Assembly (NCBI RefSeq): GCF_900149705.1
Contig: NZ_LT703001.1
Coordinates: 1,364,001 to 1,428,000 of the forward strand
Origin: Sphingorhabdus sp. Alg231-15
Lineage (GTDB): Bacteria; Pseudomonadota; Alphaproteobacteria; Sphingomonadales; Sphingomonadaceae
Direction: 5' to 3'
DNA: 64,000 nucleotides
Below are positions 1-9,281 of the stretch, one piece after another. Position numbers and translations under genes: made by a program. The first letter of the stretch is position 1. Each line of letters starts with the position of its first letter. Under the pieces are notes generated by a model, which saw nothing but the letters and a program-made list of their open reading frames with translations, did no database searches and was not told the DNA's origin.

Positions 1-1956
1 AATTCTGACTTTGATCTTGCTGATATCGATGCTGGTGCAGGCATGCTCGCGGTCGGCGGCCCCGATTCTGAAGAAGAAGCCGCGGTCAACCCCGCCGAAC
101 CTCCGGTAGCCGATCCGGCAGTCGTGGAGCCAGTAGCGGCTGAACCGCAACAGCTAGAAATGGATTTTGATGGCCTGGAAGCTGACGAGGCGTTGATCGA
201 TGGCCGCCGCCGTCCAGGTGTGCCCAAAGAGCTGCCAGATCGTGTCATTCAGAATAATCCCGGAGCGATTAGTGCACCGCCTCCCGAGGCTTTTCCGACA
301 GACGAATTTCCTGTCCCGGATCGCTGGCGGATATTACAGACCTTATGCCCGCAAAAAGGCGGTGATCAGTCGATCTATAAAGTATTTGGTGCACTGAAAA
401 ATAACTGCAGCAATACGTCCAATCCCTATGCGCAAAATGTGCTGAAAGGCGACAAGCCCATTCCGGCCGACAAAAAACCGTCCTTCCTGAAAGGCGATGA
501 TTGGTTCTTTGTCGTCAACGCGATTTCCGACACAGTCATCGAACCGCGAAGCTTCCCCATTCCGGTGGGCGTGCAAACCACGGAGCGTACAAACAGCCTT
601 GACGTATTTGGACGTTCGGGATCCGAAGTCTACGCTCAAACCTTCATCACCGGTGTGGCCCTGATCAAAGGTTCAACCGCTTACAAACCACCTGATGTCG
701 AATATCGGCTTACGCTTGCGACACAGATCAACCACGTCAATGTACCCGAACGCCGGGTATTGTTTGTCGAACCTTCGAAAACGTCCAACCGCACCGACTA
801 TTTTGTCGGCGTGCAAGAAGCATTTTTCGATTATCATATCCGCAATACCTCTGCGCGCTATGACTTTGACAGCTTCCGTATTGGTATCCAGCCGATGCAG
901 GCTGATTTTCGTGGTTTCCTGTTTCAGGATAACCAACTCGGCTTCCGCTTGTTCGGGACACGGGATAATAACCGCGTGCAATATAATCTCGGCGCCTTTG
1001 TGCAACTGGAAAAAGATACCAATAGCGGTCTCAACGACATTCTGCAGACGCCGCGCGAAAGCTATATCTTTTTTGCCAATCTCTATCGTCAGGATTTGCC
1101 CTTTGTCGGCCTGACCAGCCAATTCAGCGTCACCTATAATATGAACCGTGAAAAGAGTGATATCGAGATTGACGATAACGGCTTTCCGGTGCGCCCTGCC
1201 CTGATTGGTGATCTACGCGGTCGGGCCTATGACGTTGTGTATCCCGGCTATGCAGTTGATGGTCGGATCGGACGGATTAACGTGACGGGCCAGATTTATG
1301 GCGCTTTCGGTGAAGATCGCAACAGCATCTTTACCAGCGAACCGGCCAAGATCGCCGCTTATTTTGCCGCGGCGGAGGCGAGCTATGACGTCGACTTCCT
1401 GCGCTTTCGCGCATCTGGTCTGTTCGCTAGCGGAGATGGTAATCCCTACAATAACACCGAAGCTGGATTTGACTCGATTTTCGAGAATCCGATCTTTGCT
1501 GGAGCAGACACTAGTTACTGGATCCGACAGACCATCCCATTTGCCGGCGGTGGACGCGCTATAAGTATCAATGGCAGAAACGGTATCCTCAATTCCTTGC
1601 GATCTTCGAAGGAACAGGGCCAGAGCAATTTTAACAACCCCGGCACGATATTGGCCGGCGTTGGTGTCGATGCAGATTTGACGCCGGATTTCCGACTGTC
1701 AGTCAATGCCAATCATTTGTGGTTCCACAAGACCGAGAGTCTGGAGGCATTGCGCGTCGAAGGCTCCATACCCAAGGATATCGGCTGGGATCTTTCCGCC
1801 GCCGCGATTTACCGTCCCAAAGCCACACAGAATATCGTTTTCCGCTTGTCGGGGGCGGCACTCCTGCCCGGCAAAGGTTTCGAGGATTTGTTCGATCAAA
1901 CCGACAAGCGTGATTTCCACTATTCCATTCTTTTCAACGCAATATTGGCTTTCTGA
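1..1956 (+). CDS. Outer-membrane beta-barrel protein, 5' partial
   Basis: The reading frame is open from base 1, so the true start lies upstream; the first internal Met is at 43. The visible 651 residues begin with an acidic, Pro/Glu-rich stretch (to about residue 75). A long region of alternating hydrophobic and aromatic strands follows, and the protein ends in ...ILFNAILAF; a terminal Phe is the usual signal for BAM-assembled outer-membrane barrels. No haem motif is present. The next gene, a multihaem cytochrome, starts only 1 nt after the stop, which suggests translational coupling. By analogy with porin-cytochrome pairs (MtrB, PioB) it could be the sheath that lets the cytochrome cross or reach the outer membrane. 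I see no clear sequence match to those families, so the role is inferred from context. Confidence 0.75.
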   Translation, partial: NSDFDLADIDAGAGMLAVGGPDSEEEAAVNPAEPPVADPAVVEPVAAEPQQLEMDFDGLEADEALIDGRRRPGVPKELPDRVIQNNPGAISAPPPEAFPTDEFPVPDRWRILQTLCPQKGGDQSIYKVFGALKNNCSNTSNPYAQNVLKGDKPIPADKKPSFLKGDDWFFVVNAISDTVIEPRSFPIPVGVQTTERTNSLDVFGRSGSEVYAQTFITGVALIKGSTAYKPPDVEYRLTLATQINHVNVPERRVLFVEPSKTSNRTDYFVGVQEAFFDYHIRNTSARYDFDSFRIGIQPMQADFRGFLFQDNQLGFRLFGTRDNNRVQYNLGAFVQLEKDTNSGLNDILQTPRESYIFFANLYRQDLPFVGLTSQFSVTYNMNREKSDIEIDDNGFPVRPALIGDLRGRAYDVVYPGYAVDGRIGRINVTGQIYGAFGEDRNSIFTSEPAKIAAYFAAAEASYDVDFLRFRASGLFASGDGNPYNNTEAGFDSIFENPIFAGADTSYWIRQTIPFAGGGRAISINGRNGILNSLRSSKEQGQSNFNNPGTILAGVGVDADLTPDFRLSVNANHLWFHKTESLEALRVEGSIPKDIGWDLSAAAIYRPKATQNIVFRLSGAALLPGKGFEDLFDQTDKRDFHYSILFNAILAF

Positions 1957-1957
1957 T

Positions 1958-4900
1958 ATGCAGATTTCCCCTCTCTCCAGATCATCAGTATCGCGTGTTT
2001 CGAGTTTTATGCAGAGCACAGTGGCACTTGTCTTCGCCACGTTATTGCTGGTGTTTGGTTCGTCTCAAGCCTTCGCAGCAGGCAAAGAGAAACCGCAGAA
2101 AATTGACTATACATTCACACCGCCAGCCCCGCAGAACCAGACGTGGGATGCAGCCAATACGAAAAGCACCGGCTGCGTTTCCTGTCATACCGACAGCGAT
2201 CAGAAAACAATGCACGAGACACCGGCCGTTGTGCTTGGCTGTGTCGACTGTCATGGCGGCGATGCCAGCGTTACGGGCGATAACTCCTGGGGCAAGCAAA
2301 GCCCGCAATACATGTTTGCGCTGAAAAAAGCGCATGTCCTCCCCAAATATCCCGAAAGCTGGCATTGGCCTTCATCCGCGAATCCGAAACGCAGCTACAC
2401 GCTGCTCAATAAGGAATCGCCAGAATTTGTCCGCTTCGTCAATCCGTCCGACTATCGTGTTGCGCGCGAGGCCTGTGGCGCTTGTCATATGGAGATTATC
2501 GAGGCTTCCGAACGGTCGTTGATGGCAACCGGCGCCATGCTGTGGGGCGGTGCGGCCTATAATAATGGTATTGTGCCGTTCAAAAATTACGTGTTCGGCG
2601 AGGCCTATACACGCAAAGGCTTGCCCGCGACGATCAAATCACCTGGCAATCCGCATGGCACCGTAACGGAAGAGCAAAAGAAGCGCGGTGCCTTGCCTAT
2701 TCTCTATCCCCTGCCCACTTGGCATACGATTCCGCCGGGCGATGTGTTCCGGGTGTTTGAGCGCGGTGGTCGCAATATCAATACCCAGTTCCCGGAAATC
2801 GGCCTGCCCAATATCGGCGGCATCATCCAGCGACTGGAGGAGCCGGGCCGCCCGGACCTGAAACAATCCAACCGCGGGCCCGGCACCGGATTGCGTGTCG
2901 CTATTCCGGCCCTGAACATCCACAAGACGCGGCTCAACGATCCGTTTACCTGGTTCATGGGTACCAATGATCAGCCTGGCGATTATCGGCAGTCCGGCTG
3001 TGCCAGTTGCCACGTCGTCTATGCCAATGACCGCGAACCGCGCCACAGCCTTATCTGGGCCAAATATGGTCGCGACGGACAGACGCAAACCAAAGATCCA
3101 ACAATCCGCAACCTGAAAGAGGGCGAGCATCGCGTTGGCAAATTTGGAACTTATGACGCTTCCTATAGCAAAAAGGGCAGCCATGATAAGAAAGCTGACT
3201 ATCATGGGGACGGGCATGATGACGGACATGGCGATGATTACAGCGGTGATATAGATCCGGCGAAACGCGAAAAAGGGCATCCGATCCAACATGCTTTCAC
3301 GCGTGCGATCCCGACCGCGCAATGCATGAATTGCCACATGCACCAGCCCAATATCTTCTTGAACAGCTTCCTCGGCTACACGATGTGGGACTATGAGTCC
3401 GATGCGCCGCTAATGTGGCCCGGACCGGATAATACGACGCCGCGCCCCGAGGGCATGAGCGACGAAGAATATCAAAAAACCTACAAACAGCAGAAATATC
3501 CCGATGCCGAAGAGGTCCGCAAGATACTGGACCGTAACCCTGAGGCTGCTTCTCCCAAAGGCCTTTGGGGCGACCTGGACTTCCTGCGCAATGTATATGA
3601 CCTCAACAGCGAGGCCAAGGACACACAATTTGCCGACTATCATGGCCATGGCTGGAACTTCCGCGCGATTCTAAAACGTGACCGTGATGGCAATCTGCTC
3701 GATGAAGACGGCGATATTGTCGACAATGACGATCCGGAGAAATTCCGCCGCGAAGACGAAGAGAAATTTGTTGAACCCGGGATCAACCCGGGCAAGTCCG
3801 TCCACATGATGAGTATCCATGCCGAAGTCGGCATGCAGTGCGCAGATTGTCATTTCGCACAAGACAGTCATGGCAATGGCTTGATCTATGGCGAGGTGGC
3901 CAATGCGGTGGAGATAAACTGTAAGGACTGTCACGGTACAGCCGATGAATATCCGACATTGATGACGTCTAACCTGGCGGCGCGGCCAAAAGGCAAGAAC
4001 CTTAACCTGCTGCGCAATGCGGATGGCCAACGCCGCTTTGAATGGATGCAAGACGCCAATGGCAAGCGCGTGTTGATCCAGCGTTCTATTGTGGATCCCG
4101 AGCTCAGTTGGCGGGTCAGCCTGGTCAAAGACAGTGTCGATCGATCCCATCCTGATTTCAACCTGAAGTCAGCGCGTGCCAAGCTAATGTCTAAAACCGG
4201 TGCTGAAACCGGCAAGTTCACCTTCGGTAGCGGTGTTCCTGCCGCGGATCGCGCCCACAAAGACGAGAATATGGTATGCTTTACCTGCCACCTCAGCTGG
4301 ACCACCAGTTGTGGTGGCTGCCATCTACCGATTGAGGCCAACTGGCAAACGGAAAGCCATAAATATGAGGGCGGTACCACACGGAACTACGCCACCTACA
4401 ACCCGCAGGTAGCACGCGACCAGATGTTCCAGCTTGGCCGTCACCAGACCACCAAAGGCAGCATCATCGCACCGGTTCGTTCTACCTCGGCACTGGTATT
4501 GTCCTCGACCAATATCAACCGCGAACGCATCTATGTGCAGCAACCACCTATCTCGGCTATTGGTTTCTCCAGCCAGGCCTTTGCGCCCCACTTCCCGCAC
4601 ACGGTGCGCAAGACGGAAACTAAACAATGCTCCGATTGTCACTTGAGCGAAGCCAACGACAATAATGCCATCATGTCACAGCTGCTGCTACAAGGTACGA
4701 ATTTCGTGAACTTTGTTGGTCTGCATGCATGGGTCGGTATGGATAAAGGCTTCGAAGCCGTGCGCGTCACCGAGTGGGACGAGCCACAAGCAGTCATCGG
4801 TTCTTACCTGCAAAAATATGCTTATCCTGATTATTGGCGGATGCATGTTGAGGACAATGGACGCGAACTCATCAACTGGGTGCGCGGAGAACGGCTGGAT

Positions 4901-6148
4901 GATGATCTGTCCGGCGAGACCAAAGCGCTTGAGGAATTTGCCAATGTCGTACAGGGCACTGGCGACAGTGTCCGTTGTCTGCAGCTGCGCGGCGAATATA
5001 TGTTTGTCGCAGAAGGCAAAGGCGGGTTCCGCGCTTATGATGTTGCTTCGATCGGCAACAAGGGCTTTTCCGAACGGATCGTCAAGGCGCCCTTCTCTTC
5101 TCTGGGCCACGACACCCATGTCGATACGAAGAACGCGACCTGCATGGCGCTGTCGACCAATCAGCCTGTTGCTCCGGAACGCAATACCGCCGAGCTGCGC
5201 GAGATTAATGAAGAACAGGCGTTTCACCCGATTTATAACTATGCCGTGATTACCGATAGCGAAGAGGGTCTAATTCTCGTTGATATCAACACGCTGGCCG
5301 ATGGCGAGTTCCGAAACAACTTCTTCAAACGGGCCGTGACCTGGAATGCAGAAGAGGTTTTGAACGGGGCCAAGCACATCACACTGGCTGGTCATTATGC
5401 CTATATCACCGCAGCGAGTGGATTGGTTGTTATTGACCTCGACGATCCGCTGAAACCGCGCCATGTAATCACGATGCCGATGACGGATGCGCGGGCGTCT
5501 GCGTTGCAGTTCCGCTATCTGTGGGTCACCGATACCGACGGTGTGAAACTGTTCAATGTCACGGATATGGAGAACCCGATTCCGGTAGAATCAGGAACAA
5601 TCCCGCTAACAAATGCGCGCAGGCTCTATCTTGCAAGAACCTATGCGTATATCGCTGCAAAGAACGAAGGGTTGGTTATCGCCAATATCACCAAACCGGA
5701 GGATCCCGTGATCTACCGCAAGGAGACATTTGGCGGCCAGATGAATGATGCAGAAGATGTTATCGTCGGCTCGACCAATGCAACGCTGTTTGCGTATGTT
5801 GCAGACGGTCGCAATGGTCTGAAAGTGATTCAGTTGACATCTCCGGATAGCCAACCGAATTATTATGGTTTCTCGCCACCACCGATGCCGGAACTCATTG
5901 CCTTTGCCCGCACTCCGAAACCAGCTCTCGCCCTTTCCAAGGGTCTGGATCGTGATCGGGCCGTGGATGAAACGGGCGGTCAGATGGCGGTGTTCGGGCG
6001 GCTAGGTTCCCGGCCATTTAATCGCAACGAGATGCAGCGCTTCTATCTCAACAGTCAAGGCAATCCCTATTTCGTCAAAGACGAGGCCAGTCTCTCTGAC
6101 TGGATTGGTCCTGTACCGCCCATGCTGGCGCGGAGCACGACGAAGTGA
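1958..6148 (+). CDS. Giant decahaem c-type cytochrome with C-terminal LVIVD-like beta-propeller
   Basis: 1396 residues. I chose ATG 1958, just after the upstream stop, because it gives a Sec signal peptide ending near SSQAFAAG; ATG 2009 is a later alternative. Ten CXXCH haem sites are visible: CVSCH (~72), CVDCH (~94), CGACH (~172), CASCH (~347), CMNCH (~455), CADCH (~627), CKDCH (~654), CFTCH (~773), CGGCH (~784) and CSDCH (~890). A His/Asp-rich insert lies at about 405-430 and an acidic Ca-loop-like stretch at about 575-590. From about 1000 to 1330 there are five or so repeats of the form YAYIxxxxGLxVIDxxxPxxP, typical of LVIVD propellers of surface proteins. It probably transfers electrons at or outside the outer membrane with the barrel protein upstream. 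Electron donor and acceptor cannot be told from sequence. Confidence 0.9.
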   Translation: MQISPLSRSSVSRVSSFMQSTVALVFATLLLVFGSSQAFAAGKEKPQKIDYTFTPPAPQNQTWDAANTKSTGCVSCHTDSDQKTMHETPAVVLGCVDCHGGDASVTGDNSWGKQSPQYMFALKKAHVLPKYPESWHWPSSANPKRSYTLLNKESPEFVRFVNPSDYRVAREACGACHMEIIEASERSLMATGAMLWGGAAYNNGIVPFKNYVFGEAYTRKGLPATIKSPGNPHGTVTEEQKKRGALPILYPLPTWHTIPPGDVFRVFERGGRNINTQFPEIGLPNIGGIIQRLEEPGRPDLKQSNRGPGTGLRVAIPALNIHKTRLNDPFTWFMGTNDQPGDYRQSGCASCHVVYANDREPRHSLIWAKYGRDGQTQTKDPTIRNLKEGEHRVGKFGTYDASYSKKGSHDKKADYHGDGHDDGHGDDYSGDIDPAKREKGHPIQHAFTRAIPTAQCMNCHMHQPNIFLNSFLGYTMWDYESDAPLMWPGPDNTTPRPEGMSDEEYQKTYKQQKYPDAEEVRKILDRNPEAASPKGLWGDLDFLRNVYDLNSEAKDTQFADYHGHGWNFRAILKRDRDGNLLDEDGDIVDNDDPEKFRREDEEKFVEPGINPGKSVHMMSIHAEVGMQCADCHFAQDSHGNGLIYGEVANAVEINCKDCHGTADEYPTLMTSNLAARPKGKNLNLLRNADGQRRFEWMQDANGKRVLIQRSIVDPELSWRVSLVKDSVDRSHPDFNLKSARAKLMSKTGAETGKFTFGSGVPAADRAHKDENMVCFTCHLSWTTSCGGCHLPIEANWQTESHKYEGGTTRNYATYNPQVARDQMFQLGRHQTTKGSIIAPVRSTSALVLSSTNINRERIYVQQPPISAIGFSSQAFAPHFPHTVRKTETKQCSDCHLSEANDNNAIMSQLLLQGTNFVNFVGLHAWVGMDKGFEAVRVTEWDEPQAVIGSYLQKYAYPDYWRMHVEDNGRELINWVRGERLDDDLSGETKALEEFANVVQGTGDSVRCLQLRGEYMFVAEGKGGFRAYDVASIGNKGFSERIVKAPFSSLGHDTHVDTKNATCMALSTNQPVAPERNTAELREINEEQAFHPIYNYAVITDSEEGLILVDINTLADGEFRNNFFKRAVTWNAEEVLNGAKHITLAGHYAYITAASGLVVIDLDDPLKPRHVITMPMTDARASALQFRYLWVTDTDGVKLFNVTDMENPIPVESGTIPLTNARRLYLARTYAYIAAKNEGLVIANITKPEDPVIYRKETFGGQMNDAEDVIVGSTNATLFAYVADGRNGLKVIQLTSPDSQPNYYGFSPPPMPELIAFARTPKPALALSKGLDRDRAVDETGGQMAVFGRLGSRPFNRNEMQRFYLNSQGNPYFVKDEASLSDWIGPVPPMLARSTTK

Positions 6149-6278: not shown

Positions 6279-6704
6279 TTAGCAGTTGCGGTCAATTGCG
6301 CGGCCCGCCAGCGCTCCAACAGCACCGCCAATGATAGTGCCTTCGGTCTTGTCACCGCGGCGTGCAACCTCGTTGCCTAACAGACCACCAGCAATCGCGC
6401 CGATGATGGTACCGCCGGTGCCGCGATCACATCCACGATAGCGACGACGATCATTGCGATAGCGACGCTTGTCGCGATAATAACGGCGCTTTTCACGATA
6501 AGCGCGACGATCCCGGCGGTCATAATAACGGTCATCCCGATAATAATCGCCGCGACGATAATCGCGCCGATCACCAATGCGCTCGTAATAGCCGTCATTA
6601 TAACCTTGATAATAACCGCCCCGCGCCTCAGCCGGCGTTGCGAAGGCCATCGCTGATATTGCAGCTGTGGTGATGGCGAGTGTTCCTAGAACCTTGTTGA
6701 TCAT
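6279..6704 (-). CDS. Glycine-zipper 2TM envelope protein with Arg/Tyr/Asp-rich middle
   Basis: 141 residues from ATG 6704, which has a good GGAG site 8 nt upstream; a longer frame to 6755 lacks one. A signal peptide (ITTAAISAMAFATPAEA) is followed by a low-complexity stretch of Arg, Tyr and Asp (about 30-90) and then a glycine-zipper pair, GGTIIGAIAGGLLGNEVA and GTIIGGAVGALAGRAID. This architecture is that of the Rickettsia 17 kDa antigen-like (glycine zipper 2TM) proteins, which sit in the outer envelope. There is no lipobox Cys at the cleavage site. A second protein of the same design lies at 8889-9281. Confidence 0.8.
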   Translation of the reverse strand: MINKVLGTLAITTAAISAMAFATPAEARGGYYQGYNDGYYERIGDRRDYRRGDYYRDDRYYDRRDRRAYREKRRYYRDKRRYRNDRRRYRGCDRGTGGTIIGAIAGGLLGNEVARRGDKTEGTIIGGAVGALAGRAIDRNC

Positions 6705-6966
6705 TTTATACTCCAAAAGGATCTTTCGCGATCCGATTCGTTTGATGCCCGACAAATATGGTTTTAGGCTTCACCGATTGACCACTTGCTGAATGTCGAT
6801 TTTATCTTAGGTTCATGTTGGAGGTCTCTTTTATGAACAAGTCACGTTTTCCGTTTATCTTTCAATGTTTTGAGACGCTGCACTAAGCAGTCCCTAGTCT
6901 TTTAAGTCATTGCCGCTGGTTCGCTCTAACGATAGCTCTAGGAAAAAATATCAATGGGAGAAGATC

Positions 6967-8888: not shown

Positions 8889-9281
8889 TTATCGGCAGCG
8901 CAATTCTCCGCGATCAATTTCCCGTCCCAATAGCGCACCGCCAGCAGCACCCAATACAGTTCCAACGGTACGGTCGCGGCCACCATCAATTTCTCTGCCA
9001 AGCAAAGCTCCGACCGCACCGCCGATAATTAATCCCACCGTGCCATCATCACGCTTACAGCGATAGCGACCATCGCGACCTCGCCAGTAGCGATCTCCTC
9101 GCTTCATACGACGCGGTTTATAGTAGCGATCATCATCATCGTCATCCCAGTCATCGTCACTGACCCGGTAGAATCCAGCTACCGGGCCACCATGACCATT
9201 GTAGCCATCCGCGTCGGCCAGCGCCGGCGTGGCTGGCAGAAATAAAGTCGCGGCGGCAATACCCATAAATATCTTCTGCAT
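8889..9281 (-). CDS. Glycine-zipper 2TM envelope protein with Asp-rich segment
   Basis: 130 residues, with GGGAG 6 nt before the ATG. A signal peptide (MGIAAATLFLPATPALA) is followed by an acidic run of ten Asp around DDDWDDDDDDRYY, then Arg/Tyr-rich sequence, and finally two glycine-zipper hairpins (GLIIGGAVGALLGREID and GTVLGAAGGALLGREID). Same domain family as the protein at 6279-6704, but here the low-complexity part is acidic first and basic later. Predicted to be exported and inserted in the envelope. The precise role of this family is unknown. Confidence 0.8.
   Translation of the reverse strand: MQKIFMGIAAATLFLPATPALADADGYNGHGGPVAGFYRVSDDDWDDDDDDRYYKPRRMKRGDRYWRGRDGRYRCKRDDGTVGLIIGGAVGALLGREIDGGRDRTVGTVLGAAGGALLGREIDRGELRCR

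What the first reader, a model, noticed from the sequence alone, without database searches (positions are those of the whole stretch)
1..6148. Outer-membrane barrel coupled to a giant decahaem cytochrome with a beta-propeller
Seen: ten CXXCH motifs in a 1396-residue exported protein, an LVIVD-like propeller at its end, and a barrel protein ending in Phe whose stop is 1 nt away from the cytochrome start. Known: porin-cytochrome pairs such as MtrAB or PioAB move electrons across the outer membrane, but their cytochromes are not fused to LVIVD propellers. Inference: this is a variant conduit in a sphingomonad, where such systems are hardly described.
Basis: partly seen in the sequence, partly recalled or inferred. 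Interest (0 to 1): 0.8.

Follow-up and report, generated by a model that had tools for sequence, protein, structure and literature searches.

The report
Undescribed trans-envelope electron chain in sphingomonads
The two genes are half of a widespread, undescribed set of bacterial proteins that looks built to carry electrons from NAD(P)H inside the cell through both membranes to a very large ten-haem protein at or beyond the outer membrane, in bacteria thought of as plain aerobes.

Summary
In detail: a barrel gene (start lies upstream of base 1) ends 1 nt before a 1396-aa exported protein with ten CXXCH motifs and LVIVD repeats. The suggested MtrAB/PioAB type does not. The barrel is predicted 18-stranded with AlgE fold and does not match MtrB_PioB; neither cytochrome resembles MtrA/MtrC beyond haem motifs.
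Upstream lie two more operon genes: a pentahaem C554-like cytochrome (4 CXXCH plus an invariant CX4CH) and an HbpS-like lipoprotein. The four-gene order recurs in 73 of 74 complete loci. A second operon 2 Mb away encodes a flavoprotein/cNMP/4Fe-4S reductase, a five-helix protein with two WX3HX13H motifs, and an FHA-anchored decahaem cytochrome. In 298 genomes of the order, reductase and giant cytochrome occur in the same 82 and no others, often side by side.
The inner-membrane half and the C554-like cytochrome are related to 'PCC4' (He 2017); barrel, HbpS protein and giant cytochrome have no detected counterpart in PCC4-like loci. Best reading: a new PCC variant, probably an NAD(P)H-driven, signal-gated route to an outer-membrane or surface reductase. 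Direction, surface exposure and substrate are inferred, not shown.

The parts
1..1956 (+). Outer-membrane barrel, C-terminal 651 of about 700 residues. The GTG start lies about 150 nt upstream of the window, 5 nt after the stop of the HbpS-like gene. Residues ~229-711 of the 712-aa frame form 18 predicted strands; C-terminal Phe.
   Evidence: AlphaFold2, strand blocks mostly pLDDT 80-94; Foldseek: AlgE E 1e-14
1958..6148 (+). Giant exported decahaem cytochrome with C-terminal LVIVD repeats, 1396 aa
1958..2083 (+). Signal peptide (residues 1 to ~42), no lipobox
   Evidence: hydropathy; cleavage site by eye, inferred
2174..4642 (+). Haem region, residues 73-895: ten CXXCH. 26 His are invariant or nearly so; besides the ten motif His, 15 lie in or near this region, enough for bis-His ligation of all ten haems
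3179..3250 (+). His/Asp/Gly-rich loop (residues 408-431, SHDKKADYHGDGHDDGHGDDYSGD) between haems 4 and 5; absent from some homologues (L027, L029)
   Evidence: metal binding is only a guess
4955..5917 (+). LVIVD-type propeller region, about residues 1000-1320, two invariant Cys (1007, 1062); boundaries approximate
   Evidence: retained in distant homologues

Best explanation
The barrel and giant cytochrome are the outer-membrane end of a seven-protein electron-transfer chain crossing both membranes. Inner end (second operon, C1:3416579-3421791): a cytosolic NAD(P)H flavoprotein with two CRP-like cNMP domains and 4Fe-4S clusters passes electrons to a five-helix inner-membrane protein whose two WX3HX13H motifs fit two b haems, the layout of NOX/ferric reductases. 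From there they pass to a membrane-anchored decahaem cytochrome with a cytosolic FHA domain and ten periplasmic bis-His haems. Outer end (operon at the window start): a C554-like pentahaem cytochrome carries electrons across the periplasm to an 18-stranded barrel, an HbpS-like outer-membrane lipoprotein and the giant decahaem-LVIVD cytochrome, which delivers them to a terminal acceptor at or outside the outer membrane. cNMP and FHA domains probably gate the flow. Shown by sequence: parts, motifs, conserved order, co-occurrence, predicted barrel fold. Inferred: that the parts form one chain, b-haem binding, outward direction, surface exposure, gating, acceptor.
For: Four-gene operon, gaps of 5 nt or less, same order in 73 of 74 complete loci and hbps-bar-cyt-c554 in the other. 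Giant cytochrome and reductase in exactly the same 82 of 298 genomes of the order. Operons within 15 kb in 46 genomes, usually convergent, and one continuous run red-imb-fha-hbps-bar-cyt in other lineages. Pfam: Pyr_redox, two cNMP_binding, Fer4; C554; HbpS; FHA plus cytochrome c7/c3. Invariant HX13H in both helices. FHA cytochrome: ten CXXCH and exactly ten further conserved His in 82 homologues. Pentahaem: 4 CXXCH + 1 CX4CH in 97 of 97. No NapC/CymA match in this genome, so the second operon is the evident inner-membrane donor.
Against: An 18-strand barrel is much narrower than MtrB's 26 and is not known to house a multihaem wire. The giant cytochrome has 140 aa per haem (about 82 in its haem region), so it is no compact wire. 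The haem-domain model failed (mean pLDDT 41), so no haem path is known. No localisation signal places the giant cytochrome outside. Co-occurrence within one order is partly shared ancestry. The flavoprotein half of the reductase is missing from the L140 gene as read, so NAD(P)H may not be the universal donor. No conserved FNR, CRP or Fur site was found.
Confidence: 0.6

Rival explanations
1. Same chain, run inwards: the surface cytochrome oxidises an extracellular donor such as Fe(II), Mn(II) or reduced humics, and electrons enter the quinone pool or are pushed to NAD(P)+. This is the direction He et al. 2017 drew for PCC3 and PCC4.
For: The closest described clusters were proposed in Fe(II) oxidisers with this direction (PMC5566968). 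The hosts respire oxygen, so electrons taken in have a sink. PCC4-like loci and L140 as read have the Fe-S/cNMP gene without the flavoprotein half.
Against: In this genome and in most loci the Fe-S/cNMP part is fused to a Pyr_redox flavoprotein, which fits NAD(P)H oxidation better. Hosts include many ordinary heterotrophs not known for metal oxidation.
Confidence: 0.17
2. The outer-membrane operon is a periplasmic or outer-membrane redox enzyme for a soluble substrate. The barrel is a substrate channel and the giant cytochrome the catalytic unit, with no extracellular electron transfer.
For: Barrel fold closest to AlgE and OprD-type solute channels; low haem density; HbpS-like and propeller domains suggest ligand binding; weak similarity to reductase-type multihaem proteins.
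Against: No known catalytic-haem motif was seen (all ten CXXCH invariant, His enough for bis-His ligation). Chains for soluble periplasmic acceptors do not usually need a dedicated barrel adjacent to the cytochrome gene.
Confidence: 0.17
3. The barrel is an ordinary porin or exporter that merely shares an operon with the cytochromes.
For: AlgE/OprD-like fold; 3 of 48 homologues weakly match Alginate_exp, best E 0.0015.
Against: Always found with HbpS-like and giant cytochrome genes in the same order where contigs allow; in the phylum sample the barrel profile matched only genomes with the giant cytochrome plus one whose contig ends right after the barrel.
Confidence: 0.06

Closest known systems
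PCC4 porin-cytochrome clusters (He et al. 2017, PMC5566968)
   Same: Five-helix inner-membrane protein with two WX3HX13H motifs and SGXXG; Fe-S (pfam13247) protein with cNMP domains beside it; decahaem cytochrome; C554-like cytochrome (hhalign probability 98%); a barrel in the cluster.
   Different: Judged on PCC4-like loci L214 and L215: no giant decahaem-LVIVD cytochrome, no HbpS gene, no FHA match on the decahaem, Fe-S/cNMP gene without flavoprotein; the L214 porin shows no similarity to this barrel (hhalign probability 0.3%). He et al. report no extracellular cytochrome in PCC4.
MtrAB / MtoAB / PioAB
   Same: Barrel gene next to a decahaem cytochrome gene; general logic of an outer-membrane conduit.
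   Different: No MtrB_PioB match; 18 rather than 24-32 strands; giant cytochrome 1396 aa with propeller; no CymA/NapC match in the genome.
PCC3 (He et al. 2017)
   Same: Inner-membrane protein signature; barrel, large exported cytochrome, periplasmic cytochrome.
   Different: PCC3 cytochromes carry tens of haems at 22-39 aa per haem and are repetitive; here ten haems at 140 aa per haem and no such repeats.
AlgE alginate exporter (PDB 3RBH)
   Same: 18-stranded barrel fold, Foldseek E 1e-14, TM 0.70 by target length.
   Different: 11% identity; no alginate genes among the operon members; AlgE has no cytochrome partners.
NOX / ferric reductase transmembrane family
   Same: Cytosolic flavoprotein feeding a membrane protein with two HX13H pairs.
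   Different: Flavin and Fe-S parts are a separate TrxR/YpdA-like polypeptide; no Pfam ferric-reductase match.

Membership tests
MtrAB/PioAB-type porin-cytochrome conduit | Barrel belongs to MtrB_PioB (PF11854) | tested here: not met
   none of 48 barrel homologues matched at E 0.5; best hit in the genome is 13.9 bits, cut-off 23, elsewhere
MtrAB/PioAB-type porin-cytochrome conduit | Barrel of 24 or more strands | tested here: not met
   18 strands in the AlphaFold2 model
MtrAB/PioAB-type porin-cytochrome conduit | Compact decahaem MtrA homologue inserted in the barrel | tested here: not met
   the ten-haem neighbour is 1396 aa with 140 aa per haem and hits no solved structure by sequence
PCC4 | Inner-membrane protein with five helices, two WX3HX13H, SGXXG | tested here: met
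   motifs; five helices judged by eye from the sequence
PCC4 | Fe-S protein with pfam13247 next to the inner-membrane protein gene | tested here: met
   Fer4_11 in the reductase
PCC4 | Three periplasmic cytochromes with 4, 5 and 10 haem sites and no extracellular cytochrome | tested here: not met
   here 5 (4 CXXCH + CX4CH), 10 (FHA) and a giant 10
PCC4 | Porin homologous to the PCC4 porin | tested here: not met
   hhalign probability 0.3% against the porin of PCC4-like locus L214; L214 was assigned to PCC4 by gene content only
LVIVD repeat proteins (PF08309) | Score above Pfam gathering cut-off | tested here: met
   45 bits against 20.2; 57-61 bits in distant homologues
AlgE / Alginate_exp (PF13372) | Family match above cut-off | tested here: not met
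   no match in the window protein; 3 of 48 homologues weakly, best E 0.0015; only the fold agrees
ExtM (NF040943) | Curated score 800 bits | tested here: not met
   67 bits, haem-motif stretches only
Extracellular electron conduit (function) | Cytochrome exposed at the cell surface, transfer across the outer membrane | not testable with these tools
   needs localisation and activity assays

The most novel reading that the evidence does not exclude
Aerobic sphingomonads carry an NAD(P)H-driven extracellular reductase system, switched by cyclic nucleotides and by phosphopeptide binding to an FHA domain, with a non-MtrB barrel and a propeller-bearing decahaem surface cytochrome: a NOX/ferric-reductase-like chain extended through both membranes.
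Probability: 0.35. Interest if true: 0.85.

Novelty: new variant of a known kind. Interest (0 to 1): 0.62.

Why it matters
Porin-cytochrome conduits are known mainly from metal-reducing and metal-oxidising specialists. Here a complete, conserved set (with cytosolic donor and possible signal inputs) sits in a quarter of the sampled genomes of an order of common aerobes, mostly annotated as hypothetical or 'multiheme c-type cytochrome'. If it works as proposed, extracellular electron transfer would be an ordinary trait of environmental sphingomonads, and the split gene sets give clean deletion targets to test it.

Tried and rejected
Haem-domain structure (residues 41-1000): pLDDT 41, unusable, not searched further. 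PDB by sequence for giant cytochrome and barrel: nothing. Barrel identities came from a wrong reading frame (stops in the query) and are discarded; one search has the right ones (about 50-95%, 60-95% within the order). Upstream regulator sites (FNR, CRP, LexA, Fur): none in 96 and 61 regions. Papers on LVIVD with multihaem cytochromes, porin-cytochrome with HbpS, or FHA with multihaem: none on this system among open PMC papers. The neighbouring acetolactate-synthase-like and aldehyde-dehydrogenase genes were considered as partners and set aside: found in only 24-26 of 87 loci. Plasmid search: 13 large Sphingobium or Sphingopyxis replicons, only two predicted conjugative, so spread by small mobile elements is not suggested.
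Full report
Observation. Window bases 1-1956 (+) are the 3' part of a barrel gene ending in Phe, and 1958-6148 (+) encode a 1396-aa exported protein; the gap is 1 nt. The latter has ten CXXCH motifs against 0.01 expected from shuffles and LVIVD repeats at E 6.6e-12.

Outside the window. The window is G000:C1:1364001-1428000. Fetching upstream DNA shows that the barrel starts about 150 nt before base 1 and is preceded by two genes with gaps of 5 nt or less. One is a 664-aa lipoprotein (lipobox LTSC) with HbpS-like domains (E 3e-23). The other is a 468-aa C554-type cytochrome (E 3e-10) with four CXXCH and one CX4CH. The first haem's CX4CH is invariant: 97 of 97 sequences aligned have exactly 4 + 1.

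Distribution. The giant cytochrome is in nearly every genome of the genus, 42 of 98 close relatives, 82 of 298 complete genomes of the order (24 of 77 genera), 25 of 337 of the class and 11 of 398 of the phylum, including another class. A named near relative at 95% identity is Sphingorhabdus sp. EL138. Where all four genes are on the contig, they are on one strand in the order c554-hbps-barrel-cytochrome in 73 loci and hbps-barrel-cytochrome-c554 in one. All 37 aligned giant cytochromes keep ten CXXCH and the rest of a common set of His. An early table understated barrel conservation because the query was in a wrong frame; correct values are.

Barrel. From 48 homologues AlphaFold2 gives 18 long strands, mostly at pLDDT 80-94, with a disordered N-terminal extension. 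Foldseek against the PDB puts AlgE first (E 1e-14, TM 0.70 by target length), then OprD/Occ channels; MtrB is not in the 50 rows shown. No homologue matches MtrB_PioB in Pfam, and nothing in the genome reaches that model's cut-off. Relation to MtrB is therefore rejected. Whether an 18-stranded barrel can hold a haem path is open.

Giant cytochrome. No relative by sequence in the PDB. NCBIfam hits are below cut-off. It has 140 aa per haem overall and about 82 in the haem region, much looser than MtrA and the wire-like PCC3 cytochromes (33 and 22-39, values from PMC5566968). From general knowledge this is nearer to terminal surface cytochromes such as MtrC and OmcA. The structure prediction of the haem region failed.

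The inner-membrane half. In other lineages the cluster continues into more genes: a cNMP/4Fe-4S protein, a small membrane protein, and a cytochrome with an N-terminal FHA domain and ten haems. The window genome has them at C1:3416579-3421791, 2 Mb away: a Pyr_redox (TrxR/YpdA-like) + two cNMP + Fer4 reductase with 16 invariant Cys, a 292-aa membrane protein, and an FHA-TM-decahaem protein. The membrane protein has W-X3-H-X13-H in two helices and SGXXG between them; the four His are invariant in 83 sequences. The FHA cytochrome has ten CXXCH and exactly ten further conserved His, as expected for ten bis-His haems. A cyclic-nucleotide phosphodiesterase-like gene follows it in most loci.

Linkage of the halves. 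In one and the same sample of 298 genomes, giant cytochrome and reductase mark identical sets of 82 genomes and are both absent from the other 216. They lie within 15 kb in 46 genomes and 15-50 kb in four. In most named loci they are convergent neighbours. Shared ancestry inflates any significance value, but the varying distance with constant co-occurrence argues for functional dependence. No NapC/CymA family member was found in the genome.

Comparison with the known. He et al. 2017 (PMC5566968) described PCC3 and PCC4 with an inner-membrane protein bearing two WX3HX13H motifs and SGXXG, and noted its likeness to ferric reductases and NADPH oxidases. PCC4 also has a pfam13247 Fe-S protein, cytochromes with 4, 5 and 10 haems, and a porin. 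I found loci fitting that description by gene content (L214, L215). Their Fe-S/cNMP protein, inner-membrane protein and C554-like cytochrome are related to those here (hhalign probability 98% for C554), and the L214 decahaem weakly so. Their porin is not, and they have no giant cytochrome, HbpS gene, FHA match or flavoprotein fusion. Some genomes carry the inner-membrane half with no sign of the outer half beside it (L212, L213). The finding is thus a PCC-type system with a PCC4-related inner half and an undescribed outer half: a new variant of a known kind.

Mechanism and its limits. Proposed flow: NAD(P)H - flavin - 4Fe-4S - two b haems - FHA decahaem - C554 pentahaem - outer-membrane complex - acceptor. 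Parts and linkage are shown by sequence; the steps, direction, gating and surface position are inferred. The strongest doubts are the narrow barrel, the lack of any localisation data, and the possibility of inward flow.

Noticed in passing
G000:C1:3421822-3422667 (L183:13822-14667): A SpdA/CpdA-like cyclic-nucleotide phosphodiesterase gene follows the FHA-decahaem gene in most loci, next to a reductase with two CRP-like cNMP domains; suggests cyclic-nucleotide control.
   Followed up: partly
L213:6850-10203 and L212:7977-13028: Inner-membrane module without barrel or giant cytochrome nearby; in L213 reductase and membrane protein are one 1118-aa frame.
   Followed up: partly
L001:28-8466: 2812-aa repeat-rich ORF resembling filamentous-haemagglutinin-type surface proteins by eye, open upstream of the stretch fetched.
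   Followed up: no
L001:11093-14187: Acetolactate-synthase-like (PRK08322, over cut-off) and aldehyde dehydrogenase gene pair directly upstream of the operon, kept there in 24-26 of 87 loci.
   Followed up: partly
L030 (G022:C1:289543-293759): In one genome of the genus the giant cytochrome gene is broken into three matching stretches in different frames, a frameshifted gene or an assembly error.
   Followed up: no
L183:7306-8304: CcmH/CycH-type cytochrome c maturation TPR gene lies divergently beside the reductase gene.
   Followed up: no
window 6279-6755 and 8889-9281: Two small exported Arg/Tyr/Asp-rich proteins with a glycine-zipper-like C-terminus (GGxxGxxxG) on the minus strand just after the operon.
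   Followed up: no
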